Of a stretch of DNA of 61,313 nt, positions 19,398 to 60,837 are shown piece after piece. A program made the position numbers and the translations under genes. Position 1 is the stretch's first letter. Every line of letters begins with the position of its first letter. Under the pieces are notes generated by a model. The model saw only the letters and a list, made by a program, of their open reading frames with translations. It was not told the origin of the DNA and made no database searches. Source of the DNA: Gracilaria domingensis. Lineage: Eukaryota; Rhodophyta; Florideophyceae; Gracilariales; Gracilariaceae. Where the stretch lies: positions 1 to 61,313 of the forward strand of contig VCMS01000259.1 of NCBI GenBank assembly GCA_022539475.1, in the 5' to 3' direction.

Positions 19398-20255
19398 TGT
19401 GGTGCAAAACCCTTGACGGGAAAACAACAAGCCGCGTCGCGGACGAGCACCTCAGGGTGTTCAGGCCCTGCTCCCTGTGAAGGGCAGTCGAGCGGCAGAA
19501 CCCTCCGATAGGGCCAACACGAGCCGGGTGTAAATCCGGGTGGCCCCGATCTGGGCGTGCAGTCGGAGGTAAAAGGGGTAGAATCGGCGTAGGTATCCGG
19601 ATGGTTCCGGCGAGCCACAGCGAGTGGGGGTATCCAGCCCAACGGTATGGGACGACAAAAGATCGACAAACGAGCCGCACTGCGGAGCACTGACTCGCGA
19701 TAAGCGGGAAAACTCCCGAGACAAATAAAACAAACCTACAATGTAGGGCAGAGTAGCGAAAGCCGTAAGACGGAAATGACAATAATAAAATAGATAAGAA
19801 AAGTGCCGTGACGACGGATTAGTACTCCTCAGGAACGGAGGTTGGTTGATCAGCCCGGAATTGCGGCGGTATTCCCCAGGATGGGGCTGGTGACCGTGCG
19901 CAAGCGGCAAGAAGATCAGAGCCAAAGGCCTCGTTGAGGTTTACTTCCCGTACAGTGGCGGCAAGTGCCGCCACTTATATACGGCACTTGAAAATATCAA
20001 TTAAAATATCTAACTATCCGGCGCTGCCGGCCAATACACTACAGGTGTGCAACCGTGGCAGGCTTGCCACGGCGCACCCGCTATCGGGCCAACTTGGCAC
20101 ACGTGTGCAGAAATACTACCCTTCCTAGGCATAACCCAAAATAGGGGCACTACCCCAGTAGCCTCTCATAACCTGAGGTGTCGAAGCCGATGACGGATCA
20201 ACAAACTATGAAAAGCACCTCGGTGCATCCCCACAAAAGGGCGTTTTGCTCTACA
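19398..20255 (-). repeat. 3' LTR of chromovirus 1
   Basis: 858 bp, identical to 30317-31174 except at one visible position. It holds strong short inverted repeats, e.g. GTGGCGGC/GCCGCCAC, CCGGC/GCCGG and CCGTGGCA/TGCCACGG, and a minus-strand TATATAAG box (near 19973-19982). Frames inside the LTR of up to 179 codons on minus are chance products. Confidence 0.95.
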
Positions 20256-20270
20256 TCTCCCCCTTCTCAG
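20256..20270 (-). other. Polypurine tract of chromovirus 1
   Basis: On the element's strand this reads CTGAGAAGGGGGAGA directly against the LTR start TGTAGAG. Its position and purine content fit the plus-strand primer site for reverse transcription. An exact copy lies at 22235-22249. Confidence 0.85.
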
Positions 20271-20308
20271 GCTGAGACACCGACTCCGTCGGCTCGATAC
20301 GCCTCGCG

Positions 20309-22129
20309 ATGGAGGTATATAAGGAAGTCTCCCAAGACGGGTCTGCCGAGAACTGTTCGGAGCCACCAACACCTCCGGTGTCAGTAGCGAACCTCGTCAT
20401 CTCGAGCCCTCCCGCGATGTCCAACGCACCGAACGGCCCTCCGTCCTCGACGGCACGCATGCAAGTATCGAACCCGCCGTTCCGGTCTGTTCCTCTCCCG
20501 CAGTCGGCGGCTGCCTCCCAGCCGGGTTCTTCCGGACAAGATCACGCTCCAGCTCAGGCTGGTCCCGCGCCCGTGCGGGATTGGTTCAACGTCGAGATGC
20601 CAGCTACGCTGGGTGGATGGCCTACCGCAGGCGCGTTACGCATCCGGGATCCGCACCGGCACAGTTTCCTTTTTGCCCAGGCTCCCTGGTTTGACGCCGA
20701 AGCCGTTCGGGATACAGAGCTCGTCGACTCGTACGCTGTCGACGGTCAACTCCCTGGTGGGCTTCCTGCTGACGTTACCCGTTCATGGGACTGGATCGCC
20801 CGCGTTGCGGTTATACCGAGCTGCCTGTTTGTAGGTCGAAACGAGACGAGACAATTCGCTCGCAATGAGATGGCCCGCATTGGGTACGCGCGACACTTCC
20901 GAGCTCCGAACGAACATCCGGTGCCGGCACAGTACCAGTACGATGTGGCACGTTACCGAACTTTCGGCGAGGTCGGCTACGGCGACCATCTAGCCAACGC
21001 GTTGGACGAAATTGACCGATATTCGGATACCGTTCAGCCGCAGCAGGAGTTGATCCTGTGGGCGCGGCCGATCCTTCGCGCCGAGTTCCGGTTCCTTCGC
21101 CGTCCTGGACGGTCTCAATTTCATGAAGGCCTCCGCTTCGAGAGGAAATGGCGCTCCCGCTTCGGGGTACTGGTGCCGTACCAGTGCACGGAGGTGGAAC
21201 GCATTGCGCGTCACTCCCATACTGGGCGATACCTGCCGCTGCCGTCATTCTGGCCTGCGGTCGAAGTCCCACGAGGGTGTCACGTAGAGCTACCGCCCTG
21301 CCTAACTTACATAGGCTCGTACTTCATGAATGATCCGCCTCGCGGCCTGTGGAGCATCCTGGCAACAGAATGGACCGTCCGCGTTGCGGCTTTCCTCCTC
21401 ATCGAGGCATATGACTCGTACCGAGTTTGGTTCATCCCGGAACTCATCCGGCAAGCGATCCGAGCGTTGGATCTCTCCGAAGTGCTCGGCTCGGTCCGCA
21501 ATGCGCGCGAAGCCACCGCGTTGGTGGACGTCATTGACCAGATTGACTGGAATGAGGTGCCTGCTAGTCAGGTTTCCGACGGGGTCCGTCGGCAGTCGGA
21601 CCGTTCTCCCGGACGGAACGTCAACGCCGGCGACTTCGTATACTTTGACCCATGGATTTGGGAGGTAATTGGTCCCGCTGAGGCGGCTGGTCGCCGCCGA
21701 GAGGAGCGATATATCCCGGAAAGGCACCCGCGTGGGTTCGTATACGTCGACGATGACGGTGATGACCCTGCAGAGGGAGGAAGTCCCATGGATGAGGGGA
21801 GCCCAGTGGGGGTTGCCTCGGAGCCCGACGCTACGGGAGATGACGACGAAGTCGTGATCGTTGACCCGCCCGCTGTAGCGGCTCCCGCTCCGACCGGCCC
21901 GTGGGCTCAGGATGTAGCATCCGCCGTGGGCGGCAGTTCTTCTCTCACTCCGCGAGCGGCGGTCATTCGCGACTTCCTTCGAGGCGTGGGAGTGGCCGTT
22001 CCCGATACGGTGACCGACGAGTCGGAGTTGCAGGCAATAGCGGCACAGCGCTTCTCCGGGGCTCCCGGTAGTGGGGCACCCCAGGTGCTGGACCGTCCGG
22101 CGCGTAATTTTCCGGCTCGAGATCCCTGA
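20309..22129 (+). CDS. Antisense ORF protein of chromovirus 1 (aORF), 606 codons
   Basis: A long intact frame on the strand opposite to gag-pol, between the chromodomain gene and the 3' LTR. Start options are the ATG at 20309 or the ATG at 20417. A strong TATATAAGG at 20315-20323, just after the first ATG, could drive transcription from ~20345 and favour the second. Residues 1-90 are Pro/Ser/Ala-rich. The middle (about 90-430) is a globular region with motifs RDPHRHSFLFAQAPWF and NAGDFVYFDPWIWEVIG. An acidic stretch follows (about 490-530), and a helical end has IRDFLRGVGVAVPDTV. I recognise no family. The same motifs, in order, survive on the minus strand of chromovirus 2 (57868-59690), so the frame is an old conserved part of these elements. 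By analogy, antisense genes near the 3' LTR are known in some plant Ty3 elements (Grande-type). Function unknown. Confidence 0.8.
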   Translation: MEVYKEVSQDGSAENCSEPPTPPVSVANLVISSPPAMSNAPNGPPSSTARMQVSNPPFRSVPLPQSAAASQPGSSGQDHAPAQAGPAPVRDWFNVEMPATLGGWPTAGALRIRDPHRHSFLFAQAPWFDAEAVRDTELVDSYAVDGQLPGGLPADVTRSWDWIARVAVIPSCLFVGRNETRQFARNEMARIGYARHFRAPNEHPVPAQYQYDVARYRTFGEVGYGDHLANALDEIDRYSDTVQPQQELILWARPILRAEFRFLRRPGRSQFHEGLRFERKWRSRFGVLVPYQCTEVERIARHSHTGRYLPLPSFWPAVEVPRGCHVELPPCLTYIGSYFMNDPPRGLWSILATEWTVRVAAFLLIEAYDSYRVWFIPELIRQAIRALDLSEVLGSVRNAREATALVDVIDQIDWNEVPASQVSDGVRRQSDRSPGRNVNAGDFVYFDPWIWEVIGPAEAAGRRREERYIPERHPRGFVYVDDDGDDPAEGGSPMDEGSPVGVASEPDATGDDDEVVIVDPPAVAAPAPTGPWAQDVASAVGGSSSLTPRAAVIRDFLRGVGVAVPDTVTDESELQAIAAQRFSGAPGSGAPQVLDRPARNFPARDP

Positions 22130-22618: not shown

Positions 22619-25600
22619 TCAACCCACTTGGGCCTTGTCCAGCGTAGCCGGTATCGGTGTCCGTGTGCGACGGTGGTACTGCAAGACCTTCGAGCGAGGC
22701 AAGTGCTCAATGGGCTCGTGCGTATCCTCTGAAGAGGCGTAGCCGTACCAACGGACTCGATACAGTAGTTCCCCGTCAGGGGCGTAGCCGTGACTTATCA
22801 GACGGTCAATGACATACTCCTCATCGAGGACCTTCCGCGCAGGATGCGGCTTTGTCGATGTATCCTCTCTCGAGGTGTCGTTGTTACCTCTCCCGTCGTG
22901 GGCTTCATTGGTTACTTTCGGCTTCCGTCCTGACGGCAAGACATCCTGTACGCCAGGCGAGAGCCATTTTGACCATGGTGTTTCCATGTTATTCCGGCTT
23001 CCAGAGTTCTGGCTTTCCTTCCCGTATTGTCGGGCTGTTACCGAGCTTCGGTGTTCTCGAATAGCGAGCTTCCGGCGTTCCGGCAAGATCTCCCGAAGTG
23101 AGGGTGAACGGTCCGCAATGCGGTGTGCCAGCGAGTGGTGCCGTGGCACGTGCCGAGGCGACGCCTTGCCAAGCATTGCTGGCGGTGGGGCCTGCGCCGT
23201 TGCACGGCTGTGCGTTGCCGATTCAAATTCGGAATTTCCGTTTCCGGCGGCCGCAAGCCTTACAGCGGGCACGTGCCCGGCTCGTGTGTTGTCACCCTCC
23301 ACTGGAGGCGGATCGCCGGCGAAGCCAGACACTTGGCGCAGCGTGCGCGCGTGTGCAGCGTTGGGCTGCTGCCCACCTACTGTGGCATGTCGGCCTGCTG
23401 TTGCGGCGGTTGCCTCCGTGTTTTCAACGGCTTCATCACTCGATGCTTCAATAAAATCTCCCGAAATCGGGTCTGCCGTAACAACACGGTCTTTCTGGAC
23501 AGGCTTCTTTCCCGGTCTTCCGGCTTCTTTTGACCCGAGTGCGCTGCCGCTGCCGGGCTCCGACTGCGGCGGGCATGTACTTTCCGCATTCGACGTGGCT
23601 GCTGCGGTGGTTACCACCCTCTTTTCCGGCGTACTGGTCTCACGCTGCACAGCTGGGGCAGGCTCTTGTCCTTCCGTCTGTGACGGCCGTACAGTGCTAT
23701 CCGTGGGCGAAGCGACGACTTCTGCAGCAGCTACATCCTGGTGTTCTTCCGGTTCTCCGGCTTCGTGCTCCACCGAAGTGGTGCGTTCCTCTTTAGGCTT
23801 CCGCGATGACTGCGCGTTTCTCGCTTCTTTCCGAATCTTCGGCTGTACGTCGCGCGTCCGCGTGCTTTCACCACGACTTGCGTGCGGCCCGGAGGCCTGC
23901 AAAGGCACTTCCGTCGACGACGGCGACAACGAAATCGAGCGACTTACCTCCTCCTCCCCCTCCTCAGTTGGAGCGTCGGGGGTGGTGGTGAGTATCCCCT
24001 GAGGGGCCAGTATCCGCGTGTGGACATGTGCGGCGTTCGAGACTGACGGGTTAGCTTCCGGCTTTGCCGGCAAATCAGCAAGTCCGCGGCTAGGATGCGG
24101 CAGGACTGACAACGAAGCGCGCTCTCCCGCTGTCGCGGCTTGGTCCACAGTAGGCGTAGCGCTGTCCGGCGTTTCCGGTTGCTTTTCCTGACGAACAGGC
24201 TGTGGCGCAGGCGTTACGCGATCGCGCGAAAAACGCTCGTGTTCACCCTCAATATCGAGGACAACCGTTGTATCGGTGATAGAAATAACCCTGTAGGGGC
24301 CGTCCGCGATAAGAGAGAGCTTATGCCTCTTCTCCTTTTCCGGGTTATAGTATTCCTTCCGTAGGAAGGCGTAGTTACCTTCCCTGATCTGAGGGGCATC
24401 CCTGCGCATTCGTGCGTCGAAATTCCGCTTGTACGCGGCTTGTGCCTTATCGATGTTTTGCCTAACTGTAGGAATGATGTTCTTAAGCCAGGCCTTCCAG
24501 GCGTCCCTGTGTAGACGAGGCGAGGGGAACTTATCCAAAGTTGGCTGTGGCTCGATAGCCACCGAAGGTGGAACGCGTGATAGCACAAGCTCGAACGGCG
24601 AGATCTGAGTAGTGCGATGAACCTGCGTATTGTAGGCATATGTCACCGCATCGGTGTATTGATCCCACTCCGACGGATGTTCGGCAACTAATGTCCGTAA
24701 TGCATTGAGCATTGTGCGGTTAAAACGTTCAACCTGCCCATTACTCTGGGGGTGGTATGTTGTCGTAAACCAGTTTTGGATCCGCAAGATGCGGCAAACG
24801 TCCTGAAAGAACTTAGCCGTAAACTGCGGTCCATTGTCCGATAACAGGTCAATCGGCGGTCCGTAGACAAAAACCCAGTGTGTAACGAAAGCTTGGGCGA
24901 CCGCACTGGCGGTAACCTTCGTCAAAGGCACAGTCCGTACCAGTTTAGAAAAACGGTCGGTGATCACAAGTAGAAACCGGTTTCCCCGGCGAGTGCGGAT
25001 AAACTCGCCGAGCAAGTCAATTGCCACGAATTCAAGTGGAGCCCTAGCAGGGAAGAGTACCAACTTCTTGGAGTACTTCCGCAGTTTGACGCGGTTCTTC
25101 GCGCAGTCAGAACATCCACGAACAGTGGCATACGCGTCGAAAGCCATTGCTGGCCAGTAAAAGTCCTTCCGTAAGGTGTAGTACAACTTCCTGCCACCAG
25201 GGTGGGCTGACAACTTCGCGTAGTGCGACAAATGCAGTACTCGTGACTGAAGTGAGTGCGGAACCACAATCTGTGGCCTGTTTCCGACGGTTCGGATTAG
25301 AAATCCTTGGTCGTTCTCGACGAAAGGCAACTGTGCTCCACCGTTTAGGCGACTACGAATCTCCGTACAAAAACGGTCGGTGTGCTGCTCCCGGATGAGT
25401 TCCTCCGGCTTGATCGGTACGAAAGAGCCCGGTTCGGGTTTCGTGTCAGACACGGCTAAAACAGCATCGTAGATGTCCCATCCTTCCGATTCTTCATCGG
25501 CATCGCTCGAGCCGTCTTCCACGAGGAAGCACGGTATCTCCAGATCATCGACTGGCGCAGCTTCAGCCGCTGTTTCCAAGCGGGACAGTGCATCAGCCTG

Positions 25601-25849
25601 AGTGTTCAGGAGTCCTTTCTTGTAACGGATTTCGAAGTCGAATTCCGACAAGCGAAGTCTCCACCGCATCAAGCGGCCAGATGGCTCTGCTATAGAGAGT
25701 AGCCAGCGTAATGCCGAATGATCGGTATGGACAATGAAGCGGGTCCCCATAAGATAGGGCCGCAGTGTCTGTAACGCCAAGACAACTGCCAAGCACTCCT
25801 TTCGGATACCGAGTAATTCCTCTCGTGAACGTTGAGGCTCCTTGACCAA
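22619..25849 (-). CDS. Chromovirus 1 pol, part 2: RNase H end, integrase, chromodomain
   Basis: A 1,076-codon frame. It opens inside RNase H (KECLAVVLALQTLRPYLMG, then HTDHSALRW). The integrase zinc-binding region has HLSHYAKLSAHPGG and CSDCAKN. The catalytic core has Asp in AIDLLG, Asp in LLSDNG and Glu in GQVERF with exactly 35 residues between the last two (D,D35E). A GPY/F module (ADGPYRVIS) follows. A long, Pro/Ser/Glu-rich linker of roughly 400 residues leads to a C-terminal chromodomain (YVIDRLISHGYAPDG, LLYRVRWYGY, PIEHLPRSKVL). Chromodomains of this kind can direct integration to marked chromatin. The first ~20 codons are out of frame; the true polypeptide enters from the 25690-28026 frame through a 1-nt slip at the T run 25800-25802. 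Confidence 0.95.
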   Translation of the reverse strand: MVKEPQRSREELLGIRKECLAVVLALQTLRPYLMGTRFIVHTDHSALRWLLSIAEPSGRLMRWRLRLSEFDFEIRYKKGLLNTQADALSRLETAAEAAPVDDLEIPCFLVEDGSSDADEESEGWDIYDAVLAVSDTKPEPGSFVPIKPEELIREQHTDRFCTEIRSRLNGGAQLPFVENDQGFLIRTVGNRPQIVVPHSLQSRVLHLSHYAKLSAHPGGRKLYYTLRKDFYWPAMAFDAYATVRGCSDCAKNRVKLRKYSKKLVLFPARAPLEFVAIDLLGEFIRTRRGNRFLLVITDRFSKLVRTVPLTKVTASAVAQAFVTHWVFVYGPPIDLLSDNGPQFTAKFFQDVCRILRIQNWFTTTYHPQSNGQVERFNRTMLNALRTLVAEHPSEWDQYTDAVTYAYNTQVHRTTQISPFELVLSRVPPSVAIEPQPTLDKFPSPRLHRDAWKAWLKNIIPTVRQNIDKAQAAYKRNFDARMRRDAPQIREGNYAFLRKEYYNPEKEKRHKLSLIADGPYRVISITDTTVVLDIEGEHERFSRDRVTPAPQPVRQEKQPETPDSATPTVDQAATAGERASLSVLPHPSRGLADLPAKPEANPSVSNAAHVHTRILAPQGILTTTPDAPTEEGEEEVSRSISLSPSSTEVPLQASGPHASRGESTRTRDVQPKIRKEARNAQSSRKPKEERTTSVEHEAGEPEEHQDVAAAEVVASPTDSTVRPSQTEGQEPAPAVQRETSTPEKRVVTTAAATSNAESTCPPQSEPGSGSALGSKEAGRPGKKPVQKDRVVTADPISGDFIEASSDEAVENTEATAATAGRHATVGGQQPNAAHARTLRQVSGFAGDPPPVEGDNTRAGHVPAVRLAAAGNGNSEFESATHSRATAQAPPPAMLGKASPRHVPRHHSLAHRIADRSPSLREILPERRKLAIREHRSSVTARQYGKESQNSGSRNNMETPWSKWLSPGVQDVLPSGRKPKVTNEAHDGRGNNDTSREDTSTKPHPARKVLDEEYVIDRLISHGYAPDGELLYRVRWYGYASSEDTHEPIEHLPRSKVLQYHRRTRTPIPATLDKAQVG

Positions 25850-28026
25850 TACCCAATTGGCAATCGCTCGCCATCATTGGTGGTCTGGAATAGGGCACAG
25901 CCGACTTGGTAGTCGCTCGCATCCGTATCTACTGCATATGGCAAACCAGCCCTAGGCAGGGATAAAACAGGTGGCGATGTCACCGCGTCCACGAGCGACG
26001 AGAAAGCCGCGACCTTGCGGTTGTCGAATTCTTCCAGATCGACTGGCTGGCCTTTGCGAAGAAGCTCGTTCAGAGGTGCAGCGATATCCGCAAAGTTCGG
26101 AATGAAGCGGCGATACACATTGCACAAGCCGAGAAAAGATCGGAGTTCCGTCTGCGTCCTCGGATGCTTAGCCTCTTTGAGGGATTTCACGCGTACTTCG
26201 TCAATCGAAAGCCGTCCCGGACGGATAACATGGCCGAGATACCTGACGGTTTCGGTAAAGAACTCACACTTCTTGAGCTTGAGCGTAATGCCTGCATCGC
26301 GTAGGACTCGCATCACATCCCGTACGTGGGTCAAGTGCTCATCCAGGTTGCTGGAGTAGACAATGATGTCATCCAGGTATACCAGGCAAGTCTTCCACTT
26401 AAAGCGGGCTAGCAAAATATCCACAGCTCGTTGAAAAGTGGCTGGCGCGTTCGTTAACCCAAAGGGCATCCGATTGAATCGGTACAATCCTTCATGACAA
26501 ACGAAGGCTGTCTTGTCACGATCCTCAGCCCTCACGGGAACTTGCCAATAGCCCCAATTCGCGTCTAGGGTTGTGAACACTTTCGCGTCGCCCAATGAAT
26601 CGATGCATTCATCCATTCGTGGGATAGGATACACATCCTTGACCGTAGCCGCGTTTAGCTTGCGGTAATCGATGCAAAATCGCCAAGACCCATCAGCTTT
26701 GGGCGCGAGCACCACCGGCGATGCCCAAGGTGACTGAGCCGGCTCGATAACTCCAGCGCGGAGCATCTTCTCAACTTGAGCTTTCTCCTCCTGCCGAGCT
26801 GTCGGTCCTGCCCTGTAAGGGTGCTGTGAAATGGGCCGAGTATTCGGTAGCAAATCAATCCGATGTTCGGTAATACCAATCTTACCCAGTGTGCCATCCC
26901 ACATGGGCGTGAACTCCTCAAGCATGTGCCGCAATTTATCGCGGTGAGTCTCTGGGACATGTTCAAGATCCAGAGACTCCAGTTCCTGTACTGCCTTATC
27001 CTTCGTGTCAGCAGCACTCAGGTCCGTATCATTACTGTCCGACGAGGTCGGCATTGCTTCCTTCGACCGGCTGCGGTTATTCGCATCCGACGAAGTCGGC
27101 GTAGCATCTCCCGACGAACTGTTCGGTCCAGTATTTGTTTCGGAATTGTTCCGTTCCGCCTCCCCCTCCTCAGCTTCGAGGATTCCGAGAACCTCGGCAA
27201 TAGAAACCTTAGTAGGCACTATAGCCGCAGGGTGCGGAAGCAACGAACCAATAACTTGGCTCCTAACCAACCGTTGAGGAAAACGGCTGAAGTTCGCAAC
27301 CAGCACCTGAAAAGGCTTCTCGGGTTCGACGAAAACAATCCCATTAGCGAGGGCAAGCTGATGCTTCTCCTGTAACGCAGGCAACGGTTGTACCGTTTGT
27401 AAGCCACATTGTGGGGAGGTCACAGTAACCCAGACCTGTGATTCAGGCGGGATGGAAATGGGCCGAGCTACTCGGAGCTTTGTAGACTTCCGTTCATCGG
27501 CTGTAGGCTTCTGTGCCGCAGGCAAAGGGACTTGCTTCTTCAGAGCCCGGCGCAGGGGACGCCGAACGATCGGTACAGTAGTCCCATCTTCCATTTCGAT
27601 GGTTCGCTTCCGCGGTCGAATTGCATCGACGAAGCGGTCACAGAAGTCGCAGCCGAGGATAACCGGCGCAGCGAGTTGCTTGCAAACCAAGAAATCGAGC
27701 TTCGCCACGTAGCGGCCAAGCCTGACGAGCAGGTCTATTACTCCCACAGTCGAAAGTGGCCGATTGTTCGCATTCGCTATATCAATCTGCGGCGCCGCAC
27801 GAACGCGAGACCGCAAGTGCGGCGGAATCATAGACTCAACCAAAAAGTTTGGCCCAGCTCCTGTATCGAGCACGGACAACTGCCGAACCATGTACTGGTC
27901 GGAAACACCTAGGTCGGCGTAAACTTTGTAGTTACGTTTCGCCATGACCAGGACTCTATCCGGGAACCGGCTGTTCTTAGACCGTATCCACGGGCGACGC
28001 AAGACACCAAGGTGCTCAGAGTTCAC
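25690..28026 (-). CDS. Chromovirus 1 pol, part 1: protease, reverse transcriptase, RNase H
   Basis: A 778-codon frame. The aspartic protease has LSVLDTGAGPNF (catalytic DTG) near residue 50 and ILGCDFCDRFV near 135. An acidic Ser/Asn/Thr-rich linker follows. Reverse transcriptase has the fingers/palm motifs WRFCIDYRKLNA, MPFGLTNAPATFQR and the active site CLVYLDDIIVYS. RNase H starts with PYAVDTDASDYQVGCALF. After WSRSLNVHERNYSVSE the frame breaks: the codon series lacks one A compared with the related element, and the remaining ~30 codons are nonsense to a stop. Upstream, the frame is open back to the gag end at 28152 in the -1 frame, so translation most likely enters by frameshifting and the first Met is not the natural start. 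Confidence 0.95.
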   Translation of the reverse strand: MNSEHLGVLRRPWIRSKNSRFPDRVLVMAKRNYKVYADLGVSDQYMVRQLSVLDTGAGPNFLVESMIPPHLRSRVRAAPQIDIANANNRPLSTVGVIDLLVRLGRYVAKLDFLVCKQLAAPVILGCDFCDRFVDAIRPRKRTIEMEDGTTVPIVRRPLRRALKKQVPLPAAQKPTADERKSTKLRVARPISIPPESQVWVTVTSPQCGLQTVQPLPALQEKHQLALANGIVFVEPEKPFQVLVANFSRFPQRLVRSQVIGSLLPHPAAIVPTKVSIAEVLGILEAEEGEAERNNSETNTGPNSSSGDATPTSSDANNRSRSKEAMPTSSDSNDTDLSAADTKDKAVQELESLDLEHVPETHRDKLRHMLEEFTPMWDGTLGKIGITEHRIDLLPNTRPISQHPYRAGPTARQEEKAQVEKMLRAGVIEPAQSPWASPVVLAPKADGSWRFCIDYRKLNAATVKDVYPIPRMDECIDSLGDAKVFTTLDANWGYWQVPVRAEDRDKTAFVCHEGLYRFNRMPFGLTNAPATFQRAVDILLARFKWKTCLVYLDDIIVYSSNLDEHLTHVRDVMRVLRDAGITLKLKKCEFFTETVRYLGHVIRPGRLSIDEVRVKSLKEAKHPRTQTELRSFLGLCNVYRRFIPNFADIAAPLNELLRKGQPVDLEEFDNRKVAAFSSLVDAVTSPPVLSLPRAGLPYAVDTDASDYQVGCALFQTTNDGERLPIGYWSRSLNVHERNYSVSERSAWQLSWRYRHCGPILWGPASLSIPIIRHYAGYSL
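25800..25802 (-). other. 1-nt deletion in RNase H of chromovirus 1
   Basis: On the coding strand TCC GAA AGG AGT GC replaces the expected TCx GAA AAG GAG TGC (seen as GAA AAA GAG TGC in element 2). One A of an A run is missing. It is either a real inactivating mutation or an assembly error. Confidence 0.8.
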
Positions 28027-28140: not shown

Positions 28141-28157
28141 GCTCAGTTTTTCTGAGC
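28141..28157 (-). promoter_or_regulatory. Candidate -1 ribosomal frameshift site, gag/pol of element 1
   Basis: On the coding strand the gag end reads CAG AAA AAC TGA, giving the slippery string G AAA AAC directly before the gag stop. Pol continues in the -1 frame (GAA AAA CTG). The site lies in the loop of a 6-bp inverted repeat (GCTCAG/CTGAGC), and another potential stem, CCTCC...GGAG, follows within ~10 nt. Element 2 has the same heptamer at its junction. Confidence 0.55.
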
Positions 28158-30152
28158 GTCGCCGCCAATCTGCGGAGGTTGCGATTCCGCAGGGGCGGCT
28201 ACAGTTCCACCATTCGATGGCACCGTTTCCTGGTTTCCAGGCTGAGTCTCCGCCTTCGCACGAAGGTACGATTTGTCGGGAACACGTTCCCGCTCGGCGG
28301 GCGTCAACGACTCATACTGAGGCACTATCTTCGCCATATCCCGTATGGGCATTAAGCAATTCGGAGCGATGTGCCCTGGCCTGTAACAGGTATGACAAAT
28401 AAGGTGACGAAGAAGATCCGCGTTGGGCGGCCGGCGCTCCTGTCGAGGAGGATACGGGTCCCTCCATCCAAAGCGTTGGCTTCGATATCCGCCAGAGTGC
28501 GGCACGGGCAATGCCGGGACTTGACGTCCGGCGTACAGAGCGGGGTCTCCGTCCACTGTAGACTGCTCCGTCGTCGACGGCAATTCCGAACTCGGCATTG
28601 AACCATCGTCCTGTAACAGGTGCAGGTTATCATAACCCCCTTGAACAGAACCTCGCGAATGAGGCAGTGAGGAGTCTCGGCCTTCTACATGAAGGAGTCG
28701 GCGCGTGCGCGTCTTGATACCAGTGCGTGCTCGAGCTGCATCTCCCTCCGCTTGGGCAAATTGAACGAGTTCCAGATAGGTAATCCGGCGTTTGTTCTCC
28801 CGATAATGGGCTACCAACGTCCGAATTGATCGGTCCAGTCCATCAACAAACATCGTACACCGCTCGGCTGCGGAGAACACGTTGCCACATCTGTGGAAAG
28901 CCTTATTGAGGCGGGTCGAATAAACGGTTTCCGACTCTTCGGCTCCTTGCTTCGTGTCTCGTAGCGCGAGTATGGCACCTTGTATCGCATTGCCTGTCGC
29001 GTAAGAGCGCAGGAGATATTGTACCGCTTCCGGCCAGCACGTAACTCCTCCTTCGGAGGCGCGAGACGACCCACGAACCGAATTGAATTGATCTTCGGCT
29101 ACACCCGTCAAAAAGTACGGCAGCGCGATGTAGGCCTGTGCCTCACTCATCCGAAGTACATCGGCTTCCGCTACGAAGCGGCTAAGAAAATCCAAGACAA
29201 GAATTGAATCTTCCCCAGAGAACTTGTGGGGCTTTAACGTGAGCTCCATTTGTCGGAGATGATTTCGCACTTTGCCAGTCCCACGTGGGGTCCTCTGTGG
29301 CGTCGTGTCATCAAGCCGATAATATCGGTAAGATAGTAGCTTCCGATACAGTAAGTTTGTCGGCTTCAACTCCTTCAATCCGAGGTGTCTCCGTCCTTTC
29401 GTACGGCCTCGTGCAACGCCAGAAGTGGCTTCAGTAGCCCGCGAACGGGATGCACGATAGCGAGAGCGCTCTTCCGCGCTGTCCGAAGAGTCGGTAGACG
29501 ATCCCTTTTTGGGGCCCTCCTCATCAGAAGAGGATGAAGAAGACGAGTCAGACTCAACCTTGACCTTCTTCTTTGCCGGACGATCCCGGGAACGGCGCGA
29601 GTGCTGAGAACCCTCAGAAACCGGGGCTCCCGGCGCAACAGCATCAGATACGATGATTTGCTCGACCGTCTCCAGACGGGTAGCCAGGCGGTCCAGGCGT
29701 GCGGCAGCCTGCTCGTGCAGACCAGCCGACACCTGTCGGTGTTCCATAATCTGGTTGACATCAGACCGTAAAACACGGACGTCGCTCGAAACATCCCGGA
29801 CACCGGCTTCATCGAGCCGTTGCCGGAGTTTCGTAATGTCCCGGATGAGGCCCACTTGGGAGTTCTGCAGGATGCGAACCTGAGCCTCTAATTCACGGAG
29901 GGTATACTCGTCGGACCGCGACGACATAACGTCAACCGCTGCGGCGGCATCAGCCGCAGGTGCGGTTTCAGTTGGCCCACGAGTGGGTGGGGTCCCGTTA
30001 TCAGAACGGCGGCCCCGGGAAGCCGGTTTCGGGTCGCCATTGCCTGGGACCTCCAGTGCGTCCTTCGGCAACGGAGGCAAACTTGCCGGCAAGCCGGACG
30101 AACCGGGCACAGAAGCGGCACGTGGCGCGCCACTCCTGCGACGGGACGACAT
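28143..30152 (-). CDS. Chromovirus 1 Gag, 669 codons
   Basis: Starts at the ATG 30152, 164 nt after the 5' LTR. The N-terminus is Pro/Arg/Ser-rich. A predicted coiled coil lies around residues 80-165 (heptad-like LRELEAQVRILQ...). A Lys plus poly-Ser/Asp acidic block follows near 200-230, then the capsid-like region (FSGEDSILVLDFLSRF, GVTCWPEAVQYLLRSY, STRLNKAFHRCG). One CCHC zinc knuckle, CHTCYRPGHIAPNC, sits near residue 590. These are the standard parts of a nucleocapsid-forming Gag. It overlaps the -1 pol frame at its last codons. Confidence 0.9.
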   Translation of the reverse strand: MSSRRRSGAPRAASVPGSSGLPASLPPLPKDALEVPGNGDPKPASRGRRSDNGTPPTRGPTETAPAADAAAAVDVMSSRSDEYTLRELEAQVRILQNSQVGLIRDITKLRQRLDEAGVRDVSSDVRVLRSDVNQIMEHRQVSAGLHEQAAARLDRLATRLETVEQIIVSDAVAPGAPVSEGSQHSRRSRDRPAKKKVKVESDSSSSSSSDEEGPKKGSSTDSSDSAEERSRYRASRSRATEATSGVARGRTKGRRHLGLKELKPTNLLYRKLLSYRYYRLDDTTPQRTPRGTGKVRNHLRQMELTLKPHKFSGEDSILVLDFLSRFVAEADVLRMSEAQAYIALPYFLTGVAEDQFNSVRGSSRASEGGVTCWPEAVQYLLRSYATGNAIQGAILALRDTKQGAEESETVYSTRLNKAFHRCGNVFSAAERCTMFVDGLDRSIRTLVAHYRENKRRITYLELVQFAQAEGDAARARTGIKTRTRRLLHVEGRDSSLPHSRGSVQGGYDNLHLLQDDGSMPSSELPSTTEQSTVDGDPALYAGRQVPALPVPHSGGYRSQRFGWRDPYPPRQERRPPNADLLRHLICHTCYRPGHIAPNCLMPIRDMAKIVPQYESLTPAERERVPDKSYLRAKAETQPGNQETVPSNGGTVAAPAESQPPQIGGDAQKN

Positions 30153-30313: not shown

Positions 30314-30316
30314 GTT

Positions 30317-31174
30317 TGTGGTGCAAAACCCTTGACGGGAAAACAACAAGCCGCGTCGCGGACGAGCACCTCAGGGTGTTCAGGCCCTGCTCCCTGTGAA
30401 GGGCAGTCGAGCGGCAGAACCCTCCGATAGGGCCAACACGAGCCGGGTGTAAATCCGGGTGGCCCCGATCTGGGCGTGCAGTCGGAGGTAAAAGGGGTAG
30501 AATCGGCGTAGGTATCCGGATGGTTCCGGCGAGCCACAGCGAGTGGGGGTATCCAGCCCAACGGTATGGGACGACAAAAGATCGACAAACGAGCCGCACT
30601 GCGGAGCACTGACTCGCGATAAGCGGGAAAACTCCCGAGACAAATAAAACAAACCTACAATGTAGGGCAGAGTAGCGAAAGCCGTAAGACGGAAATGACA
30701 ATAATAAAATAGATAAGAAAAGTGCCGTGACGACGGATTAGTACTCCTCAGGGACGGAGGTTGGTTGATCAGCCCGGAATTGCGGCGGTATTCCCCAGGA
30801 TGGGGCTGGTGACCGTGCGCAAGCGGCAAGAAGATCAGAGCCAAAGGCCTCGTTGAGGTTTACTTCCCGTACAGTGGCGGCAAGTGCCGCCACTTATATA
30901 CGGCACTTGAAAATATCAATTAAAATATCTAACTATCCGGCGCTGCCGGCCAATACACTACAGGTGTGCAACCGTGGCAGGCTTGCCACGGCGCACCCGC
31001 TATCGGGCCAACTTGGCACACGTGTGCAGAAATACTACCCTTCCTAGGCATAACCCAAAATAGGGGCACTACCCCAGTAGCCTCTCATAACCTGAGGTGT
31101 CGAAGCCGATGACGGATCAACAAACTATGAAAAGCACCTCGGTGCATCCCCACAAAAGGGCGTTTTGCTCTACA
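30317..31174 (-). repeat. 5' LTR of chromovirus 1
   Basis: 858 bp, partner of 19398-20255. In element orientation it runs TGTAGAGC...GCACCACA. A TATATAAG box lies at about 30892-30901 on minus, so U3 is the 31174 side (with several perfect short inverted repeats) and R-U5 the lower-numbered side. Confidence 0.95.
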
Positions 31175-48732: not shown

Positions 48733-49715
48733 TGTGGAGCAAACCCGATTCTGAAGGTGTTTGACGAAGAAGCTCTTCATACATGAGCGATGCGCCCGTG
48801 CACGTGGCACTTGACATTATGAGGTGCATCCCCTATGGGAGTCTTCAACCGTTGGTTAATTTAATCTTAATTAGCACCCGTAGAGGGGCGTGGATGTGCC
48901 AAGGGCTCTGGTCGGGCGTGGACACGTAGACGTGGATGGCTAGTGCACAAGTGGAGCATTTTGGGGAATATTTTAGTTTGTCTTTATTTTCTGCACCCTG
49001 ACAGTGGAGTTGCGTACGTGTACCACCCGTACGGGTGTGCACTATTGTGATCGGTCAACCGGCCCGCACCTGGGGTACTTAGAGGTGCAGGGGCGGCTGA
49101 ACACCACATGATGGTAAAGCAACCAAGCCTCTCCTTCGAGAACTGCTACTCGGATCAGAGGGCACTTGAGACTCATTTTGAGTGTGGGCTCTAGGCGTTA
49201 CTGCCCTTGCCGGTGTACTACTCCGCCCGGAGGGTCACCTCAAGAGGTATAAGTACACGTACTACCCTTGGGACGCCTAAGGAATCTGTATATACCGTGT
49301 GGTATTGACGTCTACTATTTCTATTAATTCCTGATTGCAGGACAGATCTCCGCCCCAGTATTGGGTTGTTTCTTGCTCTTTCTCCCCGACGTCGGGCCTG
49401 TTGCGTGCGTGTGCACGGCCCGCGTCTCCTCTTTGGACGTACCTCTTTTTCTCTTTTTTCTTGGGCTACGTCTCCTTCCGAAGTGTCTGACTCACCCCTT
49501 TCCGGGTATTCCTCGTTTCTACACCGTCCTTTGCTGGTGATTCTCCTGATATTGGACTTTCTGCATTCACTTCTGTAGGTTATCCTCAGTACACTACTGG
49601 TTTTACACTCAGGTCCCCGGTGTCAACAGAGGCTCGTCCCCCGAGTTACCATCCCCTAGGAAGCAGGACTTCGGACATCCTGTGCGTGTTTCACCCGTTC
49701 TGGGTTTGCACCACA
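48733..49715 (+). repeat. 5' LTR of chromovirus 2
   Basis: 983 bp, TGTGGAGCAAACCCGAT...TTTGCACCACA. Contains CACCCGTACGGGTG and TATATA near 49288. Internal frames are not coding. Confidence 0.85.
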
Positions 49716-52243: not shown

Positions 52244-53598
52244 TAATGGCTAAGCGGAACTACAAAGTAAACGCCGACTTAAGCTTATCAAAGTAGTACA
52301 TGGTACGTCAATTATCCGTCTTGGATGCAGGGGCTGCGCCCAATCTGATTCACACCGCGTTGATACCGCCCGCACTTCGGGAACGCATTCGCTACGATCC
52401 AAACGTGGATATCGCCGACGCGAATAACCGCCCGATACGCACAGTGGGGCACCTATCTCTCGTGGTGAGACTTGGAACTTACTTGGTGCAGTTGGATTTC
52501 GTTGTCTGCAAGGCACTTGCAGCACCCGTTATTCTGGGTTGTGATTTTTGTGATCGCTTCGTGGAAGCAATACGCCCCAGGGCCCGAACCGTAGAAATGG
52601 TTGGTGCCTCGTCTGTTCCGATAGTGCGGAAGACATTGCAGAACGCTTCGCGTAAGCGTGTCCCCTTGCCTGTCGCTCAAGAAGCGCTGACACCGAAACC
52701 GGTCTCAACGAAACTCAGAATCGCTCAATTCGTTCGGATACCATCGGAATCCCAAGTATGGGTACCTGTCTCTTCTAAACAGGTAGGGTTGCACATTGTG
52801 CAACCCCTGTCTACTCTCTTTGCCGAGAAACAACTTGCGGGTGCTAACGGAATCGTTACTATCAATCCAGATGAACCCTTTAAGGTGCTAATCGCCAACT
52901 TTGGCCATTCGAACCAATGGCTGGTGAAGAACCAAATTATCGGGTCCATCTTACCTCACTCTACCGCCATCGTGCCAACGAAGATACCTGTATCGGAGGT
53001 GCTTGGCTTGACTGACCCTAAGGAGGGGGAGGAAGCCGCTGATGTTTCTCATTTGTCGAAGAGAGGCGACTCCACGAACCCTGACAATTTATCGGGTGTT
53101 ACTAATCCGATCCCGTCAGAGGTGAAGGCCACACCACCTGGATCTGAATTGACGGATCCTGTTAAGGAGCTGGAAAACTTGGACTTGTCTCATGTCCCGG
53201 AATCTCATTGAGAAAAATTGCGCCACATGTTGCGTGAATTCTCTCCCATGTGGGGTGGCTCCTTGGGGACCATCGGGATCACGGAACATCGAATTGATCT
53301 ACTACCGAACACGCGGCCGATTGCACAACACCCTTATAGGGCTGGGCCGAAAGCTCGTGAGGAGGAACAATCTCAAGTCGAGAAAATGCTGCGCGCAGGA
53401 GTCATTGAGCCTGCTCAGTCGTCATGGACGTCATCTGTAGTGCTTGTACCTAAACCCGACGGGTCATGGAGGCTCTGCATCGACTACCGTCGATTGAACA
53501 CCGTCACAATGAAGGACGTTTATCCAATTCCACGAATGGATGAATACATTGACTCACTTGGGAGTGCAAAGGTCTTTACGACCCTCGATGTCAACTGA
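52043..53598 (+). pseudogene. Chromovirus 2 pol: protease and start of reverse transcriptase
   Basis: In one frame from the slip site. Stops: TAG 52294 (element 1 has Gln), TGA 53209 (Arg), TGA 53596 (Trp). The protease motif is LSVLDAGAAPN, so the catalytic DTG is DAG at 52324-52332. RT begins with SWRLCIDYRRLNTV and FTTLDVN. The protease change removes the conserved Thr of the active-site loop and probably lowers or ends activity, although it may be only decay. Confidence 0.85.
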
Positions 53599-55856
53599 GG
53601 GTACTGGCAAGTTCCCATTAGGGAGGAAGATGGTGATAAGGCCGCCTTCGTATGCCATCAGGGGCTATACTGCTTCAAGCGAGTGCCCTTTGGGCTAACT
53701 AATGCCCCCGCAACATTTCAACGGGCGATAGACATTCCGTTGTCACCCTTCAAGTGGCACACCTGTTTGGTATATTTGGACGATATCATAATCTTCTCCA
53801 ATAATATCGAAGAACATCTCTCCCATGTCCGGGATGTCATGCGGGTATTGCGTGACGCCGGAATCACGTTGAAACTCAAGAAGTGCGAGTTTTTCACCGA
53901 TTTGGTCAAGTACTTGGGCCACATAATTCGCCCAGGCCAACTCTCGGTCGACGAGGTGCGCGTCAAGTCCTTGAAGGAAGCTAAACACCCTACAACTCAA
54001 ACGGAGTTACGCTCCTTCTTAGGATTGTGCAATGTGTACAGGAGATTTGTTCCGAACTTTGCGGAGATCGCCACGCCGCTCAACAAACTCCTAACGAAAG
54101 GACAACCCGTGCAACTGGAACCTTTCGGTGACAAGGAAGCGTCAGCATTTACGCAGCTGATTGACGCCGTAACGTCTCCGCGTATCTTGGCTCTCCCCAC
54201 CGCTGGGTTACCGTACGAGCTAGACACTGATGCCAGTGCAAACCAAGTGGGGTGTGCCTTGTTTCAGACCGATACCGAAGGTGTCCGTCACCCAATTGGG
54301 TACTGGTCTCGCTCGCTCAATGTGCACGAGCGGAACTATTCTGTCTCTGAAAAAGAGTGCCTCGCCGTAGTATGGGCATTGTCTACCCTACGCCCCTACT
54401 TAATGGGCACCCATTTTGTGGTACATACGGACCACTCCTGCCTACGGTGGCTCATGGAAATTTCTGAGCCCTCAGGGCGCCTCATGAGGTGGAGACTCCG
54501 ATTGTCGGAGTTCAATTTCGACGTGCGCTACAAGAAAGGAAAGCTCAACACCCAAGCGGATGCACTCTCCCGTCTGGTAACTGCTGCCGAACCAGAACCC
54601 TCCGATGATTTGGACATACCCTGCTTCTTAGCAGAACTCGCAGATGAGGAGTCAGGAATCCCACTGGATGATATTTGCGACGATATCCTCGCCGCCGAAG
54701 GAAGTGAACCCACAGCGGGTTCCTTTAAACCTACTACTCCTGAGAAGTTAGTGAGGGAACAACACTTAGATAAGTTCTGTACGCAAGTGCGTTCCCGCCT
54801 GAATGGTGGACACCGCATACCGTTTGTGGTGAACGACCAAGGCTACCTGGTACGAATGGTAGAACGCAACCCACAGATCGTGGTGCCACACTCGCTACAA
54901 CGACGAGTACTACATCTTTCACATTACGTTAAGGTCGGCGCACACCCTGGGGGTCGCAAACTGTATCTCACATTGAGAAAACACTTTTATTGGCCCGCCA
55001 TGGCGTTTGACTGCTTTGCAATTAGATGCTCATGGGTGGAATGTGCCAAGAATGATGTCCGACTTCGGAAGTACTCAAAGAAGTTGACCTTGTTCCCTGC
55101 GAGAAGCCCGTTGGAATTTGTCGCTATCGACATATTGGGCGAGTTAATTCGCACTCCCAGAGGGAACCGGTACCTCTTGGTGATCACGGATCGCTTCTCC
55201 AAACTGGTCAGAACTGTACCCCTTAAGCGAATCTCCGCTGCGGTTATTGCGCAAGCATTCGTAACCCACTGGGTGTTCGTTTCTGGGCCGCCTGTCAACG
55301 TACTCTCCGACAACGGATCTCAATTCACATCGAAGTTCTTTCAAGATGTATGCAGAATCCTAGATGTCAGGAACTTGTTCACAACCACCTATCACCCCCA
55401 GTGTAATGGGCAGTTAGAACGGTTTAACCGTACAATGCTTAATGCACTCCGTTCCTATGTGGCAGATCACCGCAAGGAATGGGATCTTTATACTGACGCA
55501 GTAACGTATGCGTACAACACGCAGGTGCATCGGGTAACCTCGCTCTCACCCTTTGAACTGGTGCTCTCACAGCCACCGCCCCGGTTGCTATTGAAGCCCA
55601 ACCTACTCTTGCGAGTTATCCGTCCCCGGCGCAGTACCGCAACGCGTGGAAAAATTGGCTTACCGAGATGGTGCCGAAAGCCCAGAAGGCGATGGATAAA
55701 GCTCAAGCTACATTCAAGCGTAACTTCGACCAACGGGTGCGCAAACCATTACTCGAATTGCGGGTGAACGACTTTGTGTTCCTCCGAAAGGAGTACTACA
55801 ATCCTGAAAAGGAGCGTCGGCACAAACTTTCTCCCATTGCAAGCGGACCCTACTGA
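53599..55856 (+). pseudogene. Chromovirus 2 pol: reverse transcriptase, RNase H, integrase
   Basis: The same frame as before continues after the stop: FGLTNAPATFQRAIDI, the active site CLVYLDDIIIFS, RNase H (ELDTDASANQVGCALF, SEKECLAVVWAL, HTDHSCLRW) and integrase (HLSHYVKVGAHPGG, Asp in AIDILG, Asp in LSDNG, Glu in GQLERF). The second zinc pair is altered (CSWVEC instead of CSDC spacing). A frame change near 55570-55600 moves the end of integrase into frame 3 (KAMDKAQATFKRNFDQ, EYYNPEKERRHKLSPI, ASGPY), where TGA at 55854 replaces the Arg of the GPY module. The intact RNase H frame here reads GAA AAA GAG TGC, which is the reference for the deletion in element 1. Confidence 0.9.
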
Positions 55857-57867: not shown

Positions 57868-59690
57868 CTAGGAAGGGGCGCTGTTCGCGTACAATGCCGC
57901 CATTTGGTGAGGGTCCGTCATCCCAGGGAGAATAGTCGCTCCTAAGCCCACGAGGGCGTCCTTAAGGGCCTGCAACCTGAGGAGGTAGCTGCACACCCTG
58001 TGAAGGTATGGCAATCTTGCCACCCCGCCGGGGCTGCCTGTCCACCACTTGGTCCCGCAGGAGCCTCCTCCCCTACACCAGGCACTACCACTTTGGTTGG
58101 GCCGCACTCGCTGGAGTTACGTCCTCAACGTCCAACGCTGGATCGTCCCACGCCACATCGGGCACGTAATCATCCGTGAATACAAACCCAGTGGGGTGTC
58201 CAGGCGGAATTGGTCGCTGTGTTCGCGAAAGCACCTCCGCATAGTGTCGGGTGATCATGTTACCTCCACACCCGTGGGTTGTAGTACACGAAATTACCGT
58301 TGGGAAGCTGACCTACCAGGCAAATGTGGTCCCATCGCGCACGTTACCTGGTCGCTCGGGTTAATACTCCACGGCACACAAGGTCCAGTTTGATCGACCT
58401 CGACGTTCCAGAGGGAGAGAGCTAGAAGCTCATCCGCGTCGTTCTGTGACCCACAGGGGTAAATACGACAAGTCCAGCACGCATGGCCCATGATCAAACC
58501 GTCGAGGTAAATACCACAAGCGGTGATGATCATAGACCTCCCAGAGGACATGCGCACAGCGTACGCGGCAGCCCATTCGCGAGAACAATTACAACAATCC
58601 GACAGACTCGCGGGTTTCATCAAAATAATCATGGACAGAATATACAAATGGATCAGGGTGAAAAAGCATCGGCCTAGACCCACGGGGTACCTCACTCAGA
58701 GACTCCACCACGGAGCAGCAACGGAACGTACGGCCAGACTTGGCGTTTGTTGCGATACGCTCATATCTCACGATGGAGTAGAACCAGAAACCGTGAGAAA
58801 CAGGCGTGCGTGCCTTGGCGCTCAAAACTTGACTCGCAGGTCGAACAGCTGCATGGGTGCTCGTATCGTAACTAACTGTAACCGGAAGTCAGCCCGAGAA
58901 TGGTCTCTCCAGCAGAGATATACGGACATTCCCAACGGCGATTACACTCTAAAAGGGATGTTCGGGGAACTCCGCCAACGACACCTCTCCGTATAGACCT
59001 TACCGTACTGTTCGCGTAGAAGCCGGGTCAAACCTAAAGACGACCGGGTATCAATAGCTCGTTGCGAGTTGCTCGCACCTTGAGGTAGAGACCAACGCCA
59101 AGACCCGCTCAGGCGCTGGTCAAGGGATTCCCACCGCGAAGATCGGTATGGAAGATAACGGCGGGTATCGCAATGCGCCGCCAGTATCGGCAATCGGACG
59201 AGTTCCACTAGAATCCCAACCAGGAGTTGCCGTATCCATACGCCGTAGGAGTTGTGAAGCGCAATCATTCTTCACGCATCGGGGTGACCACGGAGCCCAG
59301 TGAAAGAGATCAAACTTATCGGATTTTGGATCGCGCCCTTGCAAAGATTCCTTGAGATCCACACCATCGGGGTCGTGTAACAGGAGCATACGCTGCCATG
59401 AGCGAATTCACACGCACGGGGCAGGAAAGGAACCTGTGTCGGTAGTGCGTGCATCGGAGCGTTCCCTGAGGGAGTGGGACCGAAAGGAAACCAACCGACG
59501 TACTGCGGGTGTTGCTGTTGCCGAGCGGGGACGAGCGCATTGTTTTGCACAGTCCGGGTAAGGAGGAAGAAGGAACTCTCCCCGATGGGGTAGGTTTGAA
59601 ACGGATTAATCCCAGTACGACGGGAGGAGAGACAACGACGGCTGATATGTGAGAAATAGGAGGTGTAGTCGCGGTGTGGAGTTTCTGCTA
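57868..59690 (-). pseudogene. Antisense ORF remnant of chromovirus 2
   Basis: On minus, the same place as the 606-codon frame of element 1. Recognisable blocks in the right order and several frames: DPKSDKFDLFHWAPW (~59300, compare DPHRHSFLFAQAPW), NDADELLAL (~58430, compare NAREATAL), LPNGNFVYYNPRVW (~58290, compare VNAGDFVYFDPWIW), RPIPPGHPTGFVFTDD (~58200, compare RYIPERHPRGFVYVDD) and ALKDALVGLGATILPG (~57930, compare VIRDFLRGVGVAVPD). Stops and frame changes between blocks show it is dead here. This conservation between two diverged families shows the antisense frame is a real gene. Confidence 0.7.
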
Positions 59691-59825: not shown

Positions 59826-60837
59826 TGTGAAGCAACCCGATGCCTGCAAGGGTGTTTGATACGAAGAGCTCCAGTCATCAACATGAGGCGATGCACCGTG
59901 CACGATGGCACTTGACATTATGAGGGTGCACTCCCTCTGGAGTCTTCAGCCGTTTGCAGTTAATTTAATCATAATTGCACCCGTAGAGGGGCGTGAGATG
60001 TGCCAAAGGCCCTGGTCGGGCGATCGAACGTGGGACGTGGATGGCTAGTGCACAAGTAGCATTTGGGGAATATTTTGTTGTCTTTATTTTCTGCACCCTG
60101 ACGTGGGGTTGCGTACGTGTACCACCGTACGGTGTGCACATATTGTTGTACGGTCAAACCGGACCGCACTGGGGTAACTTAAGGTGCAGGGGCGGCTCGA
60201 CAACCACATGATGGTAAACAACCAAGCTCTCCTTCGAGAAACTGCCACTCGAATCAGAGGCACTTAGAGACTCATCTTGAGTGTACGGCTCATAAGCGTT
60301 TAATGAACTCTTTCCGTGTATCTACTTCACACCGGGAAGAGGGGTCCTCAAGGGTTAAAATAACATACTACCTTGGGACGCCTAAGGAATCTGTATATAC
60401 CGTGTGGTATATTTGACGTCTACTATTTCTAGTTAATTCTGATTGCCAGGACCAGATCTCGCCCCAAGTAGTGGGTTGTGTTCTTGCTCTTTCTCCCGCA
60501 GTCGGGCTGTGCGTGCGATCGTGCAACGGCCCGCGTCTCTCTTTGGACGTCACCTCTTTTTTTCTCTTTTTCTTGGGCACTACGGTCTCCATTCGGAGTG
60601 TCTGATCACCTCTTTCACGGGTATTTCTCGCATTTTACACCGTCCTTGGCTGGTGAATTCCTCCTGATATTGGAACTATTTCTGGCATTACACAACTGGT
60701 AGGTTATCTACAAGGTAACTCCTGGGTTTTACAAACCAGGTCCCACGGTGGTCAACAGAGGCATATGTCCACGAGTTACATCCAGGAGCAGATTGCGACA
60801 TCCGTGCGTGTATTCACCCGTCCTGGTTTGCATCACA
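59826..60837 (+). repeat. 3' LTR of chromovirus 2
   Basis: 1,012 bp, partner of 48733-49715, ending GGTTTGCATCACA. Very many 1-nt differences from the 5' LTR. Confidence 0.85.

What the first reader, a model, noticed from the sequence alone, without database searches (positions are those of the whole stretch)
20309..22129. Conserved antisense gene in two diverged chromoviruses
A 606-codon frame runs opposite to gag-pol between the chromodomain and the 3' LTR of element 1. The older element 2 has homologous blocks on the equivalent strand and place (57868-59690): FVYFDPWIW/FVYYNPRVW, HPRGFVYVDD/HPTGFVFTDD, DFLRGVGVAVP/DALVGLGATILP, FAQAPW/FHWAPW. The two elements differ in LTRs, so the frame has been kept over long evolution. 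No family is recognised. Antisense 3' genes are known in some plant Ty3 elements (Grande-type); I know of none described for this lineage. It could regulate the element (antisense RNA or protein) or serve in particle assembly or spread.
Basis: partly seen in the sequence, partly recalled or inferred. Interest (0 to 1): 0.87.

Follow-up and report, generated by a model that had tools for sequence, protein, structure and literature searches.

The report
Conserved antisense gene in seaweed retrotransposons
A family of jumping genes in red seaweeds carries an extra protein gene on the strand opposite to its replication genes; selection appears to have kept it, its protein has very little of the amino acid lysine, and no known protein family was found to match it.

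Summary
The frame is real: + strand 20309-22129, opposite to gag-pol, inside a young 11.8-kb Ty3/gypsy element with a chromodomain (LTRs differ at 2 of 861 aligned sites). In 65 of 68 fetched copies (window copy included) the C-terminal end of pol lies on the opposite strand beside the frame; 52 of 64 listed pol copies (element 2 included) have a convergent antisense match within 4 kb. 54 of 68 copies keep a full-length frame. Changes shared by several copies show purifying selection in families B and C (N/S 0.39 and 0.35 of expectation); family A gives 0.32 for shared changes (not significant) and 0.24 overall. Element 2 holds a decayed copy.

New: the protein is lysine-poor (0 of 681 residues in family C, 2 of 606 in the window; less so in family B) while gag and pol are normal. 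No Pfam, PHROG or PDB match. Antisense genes beside the 3' LTR are known in plants and fungal Boty; this protein looks unrelated. Probably an accessory protein avoiding ubiquitin tagging; expression and function untested.

The parts
20309..22129 (+). antisense accessory gene, family A copy, 606 codons (most fetched copies 599)
20654..21763 (+). conserved core of the antisense protein (about residues 115-485)
   Evidence: alignment; bounds approximate
19398..20255 (-). 3' LTR of element 1
   Evidence: edges read from the letters
20256..20308 (-). 53-nt gap between LTR and start codon, holding the polypurine-tract-like stretch; the antisense mRNA must start here or in the LTR (inferred)
22619..25849 (-). 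pol, second frame: RNase H end, integrase, chromodomain
25690..28026 (-). pol, first frame: RT, RNase H start (overlaps the second frame)
28143..30152 (-). gag-like frame, 669 codons (zinc-knuckle match weak, below cut-off)
30317..31174 (-). 5' LTR of element 1
57868..59690 (-). element 2: decayed antisense gene in pieces
53212..55767 (+). element 2: pol pieces, convergent with its antisense gene
48733..49715 (+). element 2: 5' LTR
59826..60837 (+). element 2: 3' LTR, 82.7% identical to the 5' LTR

Best explanation
It is a protein-coding accessory gene fixed between pol and the 3' LTR of a lineage of red-algal Ty3/gypsy chromoviruses and read in the direction opposite to gag-pol. Shown: the frame, its place, its recurrence in diverged families and in other Gracilariales species, and selection against amino-acid change. 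Inferred: the mRNA starts in the adjacent LTR or in the 53-79 nt beside it and converges with the gag-pol transcript; the protein acts in trans for the element. Its lack of lysine with arginine kept suggests that it must escape lysine-directed tagging, most simply ubiquitination, either to stay stable or because it works next to the ubiquitin machinery. I give about 0.95 to a selected protein gene, about 0.85 to an accessory protein that helps the element, and about 0.3 to avoidance of ubiquitination as the reason for the lysine lack.
For: Protein relatives in G. chorda, A. chilense and three unnamed sources. Families A, B and C 40-46% identical, all antisense: 65 of 68 loci with the pol C-terminus, one more with integrase; 52 of 64 pol copies with a convergent antisense match. 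Full-length frames in 54 of 68 copies. Frame +0 without stops, the other five frames with 7-26. Shared changes N/S 0.39 (B) and 0.35 (C) of expectation, 0 of 1000 simulations as low; singletons 0.91 and 0.74, not different from neutral. dN/dS 0.18-0.27 in five pairs of C copies. Lysine: 0 of 681 in C, 2 of 606 in A, 1-2 in P0003, P0004 and P0007, against 24 of 669 in gag and 36 of 778 and 47 of 1076 in pol.
Against: No transcript or protein evidence could be examined. Loci were the best protein matches, which favours conserved copies; in family A shared changes alone are not significant (106 of 1000) and singletons are as constrained as shared ones, unlike B and C. Stop-making changes are depleted clearly only in C (2 against 6.5 expected; B 4 against 5.1). 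Two B pairs give dN/dS 0.39 and 0.67. 12 of 64 pol copies show no antisense match. The lysine lack is weak in B (9 of 617, P 0.08) and P0008 (15 of 637), and AAA/AAG is also scarce in frame 2 of A and B.
Confidence: 0.85

Rival explanations
1. Only the antisense RNA matters: it pairs with the gag-pol RNA and feeds silencing or dampens the element; the open frame is incidental.
For: The gag-pol transcript would run through this region to the 3' LTR, so the two RNAs would overlap (layout). The review of plant elements raises this role.
Against: Selection acts on the amino-acid sequence and the protein is conserved between genera. Both roles could coexist.
Confidence: 0.04
2. A captured host gene or nested transposon carried as a passenger.
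For: Origin is unknown and no known element protein resembles it.
Against: Same place and strand in several diverged families, inherited across species, under selection. No search here could show or exclude single host copies outside elements, because high-copy families fill the scored lists.
Confidence: 0.04
3. An envelope-like or particle protein used for spread.
For: It lies in the place where sense envelope-like genes lie in other elements (abstract).
Against: It is antisense; no hydrophobic segment over the usual cut-off of 1.6 (recalled): the highest 19-residue mean is 1.52, and in B and C the peak lies in the Pro/Ala-rich tail; no signal-peptide-like start. A particle role without a membrane is not excluded.
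Confidence: 0.05
4. A shadow frame: the open frame is a by-product of coding on the gag-pol strand.
For: Minus frame 1 also shows a lowered N/S (0.24 in A, 0.76 in B, 0.59 in C).
Against: That frame shares its third positions with the antisense frame and carries 13-26 stops in the five representatives. The longest open stretch on the gag-pol strand over the gene is 275 codons. Frame +0 is far better conserved between families (E 1e-117 to 1e-109 for A against B and C; minus frame 1 about 1e-52 to 1e-47).
Confidence: 0.01

Closest known systems
Antisense additional ORFs of plant Ty3/gypsy elements (Grande gene23, RIRE2, Retand, PvRetro13)
   Same: Antisense gene between pol and 3' LTR, present in most copies of a family and in several species, function unknown (PMC7264820, sections read).
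   Different: Retand antisense proteins usually carry the TRP28 domain and Retand is a non-chromovirus lineage (PMC11963269 passages); here no TRP28 or other Pfam domain was found in nine members and the element has a chromodomain. Direct sequence comparison with Grande, RIRE2 or PvRetro13 proteins was not made.
Boty-like elements of Botrytis with the antisense gene brtn
   Same: Ty3/gypsy element in a non-plant with an antisense gene near the 3' LTR (a review section and a paper title in a reference list).
   Different: The brtn protein was not at hand; relatedness untested. Host is a fungus.
Antisense accessory protein HBZ of HTLV-1
   Same: Protein made from an antisense transcript near the 3' LTR (mentioned in passages of PMC11963269; LTR promoter in PMC7264820).
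   Different: Animal retrovirus; no sequence comparison made; resemblance of layout only.
Lysine-desert proteins of the ubiquitin system (VHL, SOCS1, BAG6, RAD23A)
   Same: Long conserved stretches with few or no lysines, proposed to prevent unwanted ubiquitination (abstracts).
   Different: No domain of the ubiquitin system was detected here; a likeness of composition, not of descent.

Membership tests
antisense additional ORF between pol and 3' LTR (aORF-3R) | lies between pol and 3' LTR, opposite to gag-pol | tested here: met
   for the window; pol C-terminus on the opposite strand in 65 of 68 loci
antisense additional ORF between pol and 3' LTR (aORF-3R) | present in most copies of the family | tested here: met
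   52 of 64 listed pol copies have a convergent match (scored and hand-picked rows only)
antisense additional ORF between pol and 3' LTR (aORF-3R) | conserved between species | tested here: met
   protein relatives in G. chorda and A. chilense; their place within an element was not seen
antisense additional ORF between pol and 3' LTR (aORF-3R) | transcribed antisense to gag-pol | not testable with these tools
   no RNA data
chromovirus (Ty3/gypsy with chromodomain) | RT, RNase H, integrase and C-terminal chromodomain between LTRs | tested here: met
   no RT phylogeny was built
Retand-type antisense protein | TRP28 (PF04195) domain | tested here: not met
   no Pfam match for it in nine members at E up to 10
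Boty brtn | sequence relatedness to brtn | not tested
   brtn sequence not at hand
envelope-like protein | sense orientation | tested here: not met
   antisense
envelope-like protein | signal peptide and membrane segment | tested here: not met
   hydropathy only
lysine-desert protein | long lysine-free stretch kept between relatives | tested here: met
   families A and C, P0003, P0004, P0007; weaker in B, P0005, P0006 and P0008
lysine-desert protein | escapes ubiquitination or works in the ubiquitin system | not testable with these tools
   needs biochemistry

The most novel reading that the evidence does not exclude
Red-algal chromoviruses encode, antisense to gag-pol, a nearly lysine-free adaptor protein that works like the accessory proteins of retroviruses: it docks on a host ubiquitin ligase to remove a host factor that restrains the element, and avoids being tagged itself by having almost no lysine. 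It would give antisense retrotransposon genes a first mechanism suggested by the protein's own make-up.
Probability: 0.12. Interest if true: 0.85.

Novelty: new variant of a known kind. Interest (0 to 1): 0.62.

Why it matters
Antisense genes near the 3' end of LTR retrotransposons are described in plants and in a fungus, and the 2020 review read here says their function is unknown. A further, apparently unrelated protein family in red algae, under measurable selection in abundant families of one genome, suggests that the arrangement arose more than once and is useful to elements. The lysine lack gives, from sequence alone, a concrete and testable hint at what such a protein has to cope with.

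Tried and rejected
Shadow coding from the gag-pol strand was rejected. Envelope-like protein was rejected as a family (orientation). Descent from gag was not supported (probability 0.2%). Known domains: no Pfam match for the window protein, and only two weak matches, each in one of nine members, among relatives (best E 0.029); one weak PHROG match (E 0.094); PDB sequences none or one at E 2.7. IMG/VR and GTDB contigs: no relative. Base composition as the cause of the lysine lack: expected lysines from codon-position base frequencies are 8.9 in A (observed 2, P 0.006) and 10.7 in C (observed 0, P 2e-5), but 14.7 in B (observed 9, P 0.08). AAA+AAG by frame 0, 1, 2: A 2, 13, 3; B 9, 12, 2; C 0, 10, 6; AAC+AAT in frame 0: 16, 27, 33. 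So DNA-level avoidance is rejected for C, is less clear for A (frame 2 also low), and B shows no clear desert.

The pol tail as a yardstick for selection was not informative: N/S 0.85-1.07 of expectation for all changes and 0.59-0.61 for shared ones in B and C. The window ORFs used for lysine comparison are not verified genes. One search read minus-strand loci in the wrong orientation and was replaced. Searches used element-2 pieces in a wrong frame and are disregarded; replace them.

Full report
What was checked. The frame exists where stated: + strand 20309..22129, 606 codons from ATG. On the - strand lie a gag-like frame (30152-28143) and pol in two overlapping frames (28026-25690 and 25849-22619) with RT, RNase H, integrase and a C-terminal chromodomain. 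The LTRs are at 19398-20255 and 30317-31174 (861 aligned nt, 2 mismatches), flanked by a 5-bp repeat, GTGTA, at 19393-19397 and 31175-31179 (edges read from the printed letters). It is a young insertion of about 11.8 kb.

Host. A database protein from Gracilaria domingensis (P0009) lies on a contig of 382,288 nt, the length of contig C50 of this genome. The genome size, 77.9 Mb, fits the 78 Mb given for that species (passage of PMC10388701). I take the host as G. domingensis (red alga, Gracilariales); this is an inference from lengths.

A gene family. Three database searches (candidate lists capped at 8000 in the first two) found eight relatives: two in Gracilariopsis chorda (66% to the window protein; the other 50% to family C), two in Agarophyton chilense (37% and 30%), one in G. 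domingensis, three without organism. In the own genome 72 family A matches were scored out of 1438 candidates; 22 of 72 show no in-frame stop by my count. Searches with distant relatives brought in families B (about 617 codons from ATG), C (670-681) and D (61% identical to P0003, seen only in tables). Pieces of element 2 found its own family (95-98% identical pieces on C430, C49 and C82) and, by a short match of about 24 residues, probably another one in frames reported as 703 residues. All counts are lower bounds, since only the best candidates are scored. A, B and C are 40-46% identical in local alignments. A tree of 12 proteins joins the window protein with G. chorda P0002, and separately P0003 and P0009 with G. 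chorda P0007, both with full support. At least two antisense lineages are thus shared by Gracilaria and Gracilariopsis, unless they moved horizontally.

Always antisense, at the same place. In 66 of 68 fetched loci (the window copy is one) pol was found on the opposite strand beyond the frame's stop; in 65 this was its C-terminal end, in L028 only a middle part. L057 and L058 gave no hit; L058 has masked letters there. From the other side, one search listed 66 pol matches to element 2; of 64 used, 52 have a convergent antisense match within 4 kb (element 2 itself is one), 12 have none, and one more neighbour on C542 is not convergent and probably belongs to another element. The 12 may lack the gene or may have fallen outside the capped and hand-picked lists. 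In the eight loci displayed, seven have the start codon 53 nt (family A) or 79 nt (B and C, by reading) beyond the motif that marks the LTR edge in element 1; L025 has lost the early start. For B and C the LTR edge is inferred from that motif, not from an LTR pair. If the start codons are right, the antisense mRNA must begin in the LTR or in that gap (inferred).

Selection. In five representatives (two A, one B, two C) only frame +0 is free of stops; the other five frames hold 7-26. Full-length frames: A 8 of 8, B 23 of 30, C 23 of 30, together 54 of 68. I compared changes between copies with the same changes dealt out at random over sites of the same trinucleotide context. N/S relative to expectation for all changes is 0.24 in A, 0.73 in B and 0.43 in C (0.25, 0.75, 0.43). 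Changes shared by two or more copies give 0.32 in A (106 of 1000 simulations as low), 0.39 in B and 0.35 in C (0 of 1000 each). Singletons give 0.16 in A (3 of 1000), 0.91 in B (320) and 0.74 in C (156). In B and C this is the pattern of a gene selected while elements multiply and decaying after insertion; A has few changes (27) and does not show the contrast. Stop-making changes: A 0 against 0.4 expected, B 4 against 5.1, C 2 against 6.5. NG86 dN/dS in twelve hand-chosen pairs: 0.18-0.27 in five C pairs, 0.39 and 0.67 in two B pairs, 0.15 and 0.38 in two A pairs; the three between-family pairs have saturated synonymous sites. Loci were the best protein matches, for A to the window copy and for B and C to distant relatives, so conserved copies are favoured.

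Minus frame 1 also has a lowered N/S (0.24, 0.76 and 0.59), because its third positions coincide with those of the antisense frame. It carries 13-26 stops, and is conserved between families far less well than frame +0.

Element 2. The best tblastn score in that region is 51.6 bits; 100 mononucleotide shuffles reach at most 28.5. Its LTRs are 82.7% identical, so it is old. Its pol is 74-81% identical to element 1 by piece and about 81% to the elements that carry family B antisense genes. Between families the antisense protein (A against B about 41-46%) diverges more than RT and integrase; gag is uneven, 43-76% by piece between elements 1 and 2.

The protein. A conserved core, about residues 115-485, is flanked by tails rich in proline, alanine and serine, the C-terminal one acidic. 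No family was recognised. Simple rules show no strong membrane segment and no classical nuclear-localisation pattern in eight members.

The lysine lack. The window protein has 2 lysines and 56 arginines in 606 residues. Two family C representatives have 0 in 681 and 670; 18 of 23 full-length C copies have none and 5 have one. P0003 has 2, P0004 and P0007 1 each, P0009 3, P0002 5, P0005 and P0006 6 each, B 9 (of 617), P0008 15 (of 637). Gag of element 1 has 24 of 669, pol 36 of 778 and 47 of 1076; seven other window ORFs, not verified as genes, have 3.1-6.4%. Against codon-position base frequencies the lack is significant in A (2 against 8.9, P 0.006) and C (0 against 10.7, P 2e-5), not in B (9 against 14.7, P 0.08). 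In C, frame 0 holds no AAA or AAG but 33 AAC or AAT, while frames 1 and 2 hold 10 and 6 AAA or AAG. In A the three frames hold 2, 13 and 3; in B 9, 12 and 2. So avoidance of the amino acid, not of the DNA word, is clear in C, likely in A and doubtful in B. Where one member has lysine, arginine is the commonest partner in the others. Two papers, of which I read the abstracts, report that lysine deserts are frequent in proteins of the ubiquitin system and limit their tagging (PMC10169902, PMC10665810). I infer that most members of this family must avoid ubiquitination or another lysine modification. This is a lead, not a demonstration.

How it probably works. Shown: a protein gene under selection, convergent with gag-pol. 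Inferred: expression from an antisense promoter at the LTR edge, action in trans as an accessory factor, and a long life or closeness to ubiquitin ligases as the reason for the lysine lack. A regulatory effect of the overlapping RNAs may exist besides.

What is known. [quoted passage not shown] In Retand they usually encode a TRP28 domain (PMC11963269, passages). Boty-like elements carry the antisense gene brtn (title in the reference list of PMC8365987). I saw no report of such a gene in red algae in the listings of ten searches; I did not read all listed papers, and the library lacks most subscription journals; I did not look for the G. domingensis genome paper itself (cited). I call it a new variant of a known kind: the same layout, a protein that matched no known family here, a host phylum for which I found no report, and an unusual composition.

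Limits. 

Noticed in passing
20256-20270 and 22235-22249: A 15-nt polypurine-tract-like motif (as read on the + strand) occurs exactly at the 3' LTR edge and again beyond the antisense gene, before the end of pol; with up to 2 mismatches 4 matches against 0.12 expected. In the three family B and three family C loci displayed no such second copy stood out; a central polypurine tract or a scar of the gene's insertion are both possible.
   Followed up: partly
30299-30316: Primer-binding-site-like stretch next to the 5' LTR on the - strand, beginning TGG two or three bases from the LTR (letters); the matching tRNA was not identified.
   Followed up: no
25690-25849: Pol of element 1 is split over two overlapping frames within RNase H, in spite of almost identical LTRs.
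   Followed up: no
44702-45244: Pieces 86-93% identical to the element 1 LTR in the opposite orientation, probably a relic.
   Followed up: no
31160-31369 and 32038-32247: A 210-nt direct repeat, 96% identical, starting at the outer edge of the 5' LTR.
   Followed up: no
G000:C259:65968-67815, outside the window: A further pol copy 92% identical to element 2 (plus an 84% fragment) on the same contig, without a listed antisense match within 4 kb.
   Followed up: no
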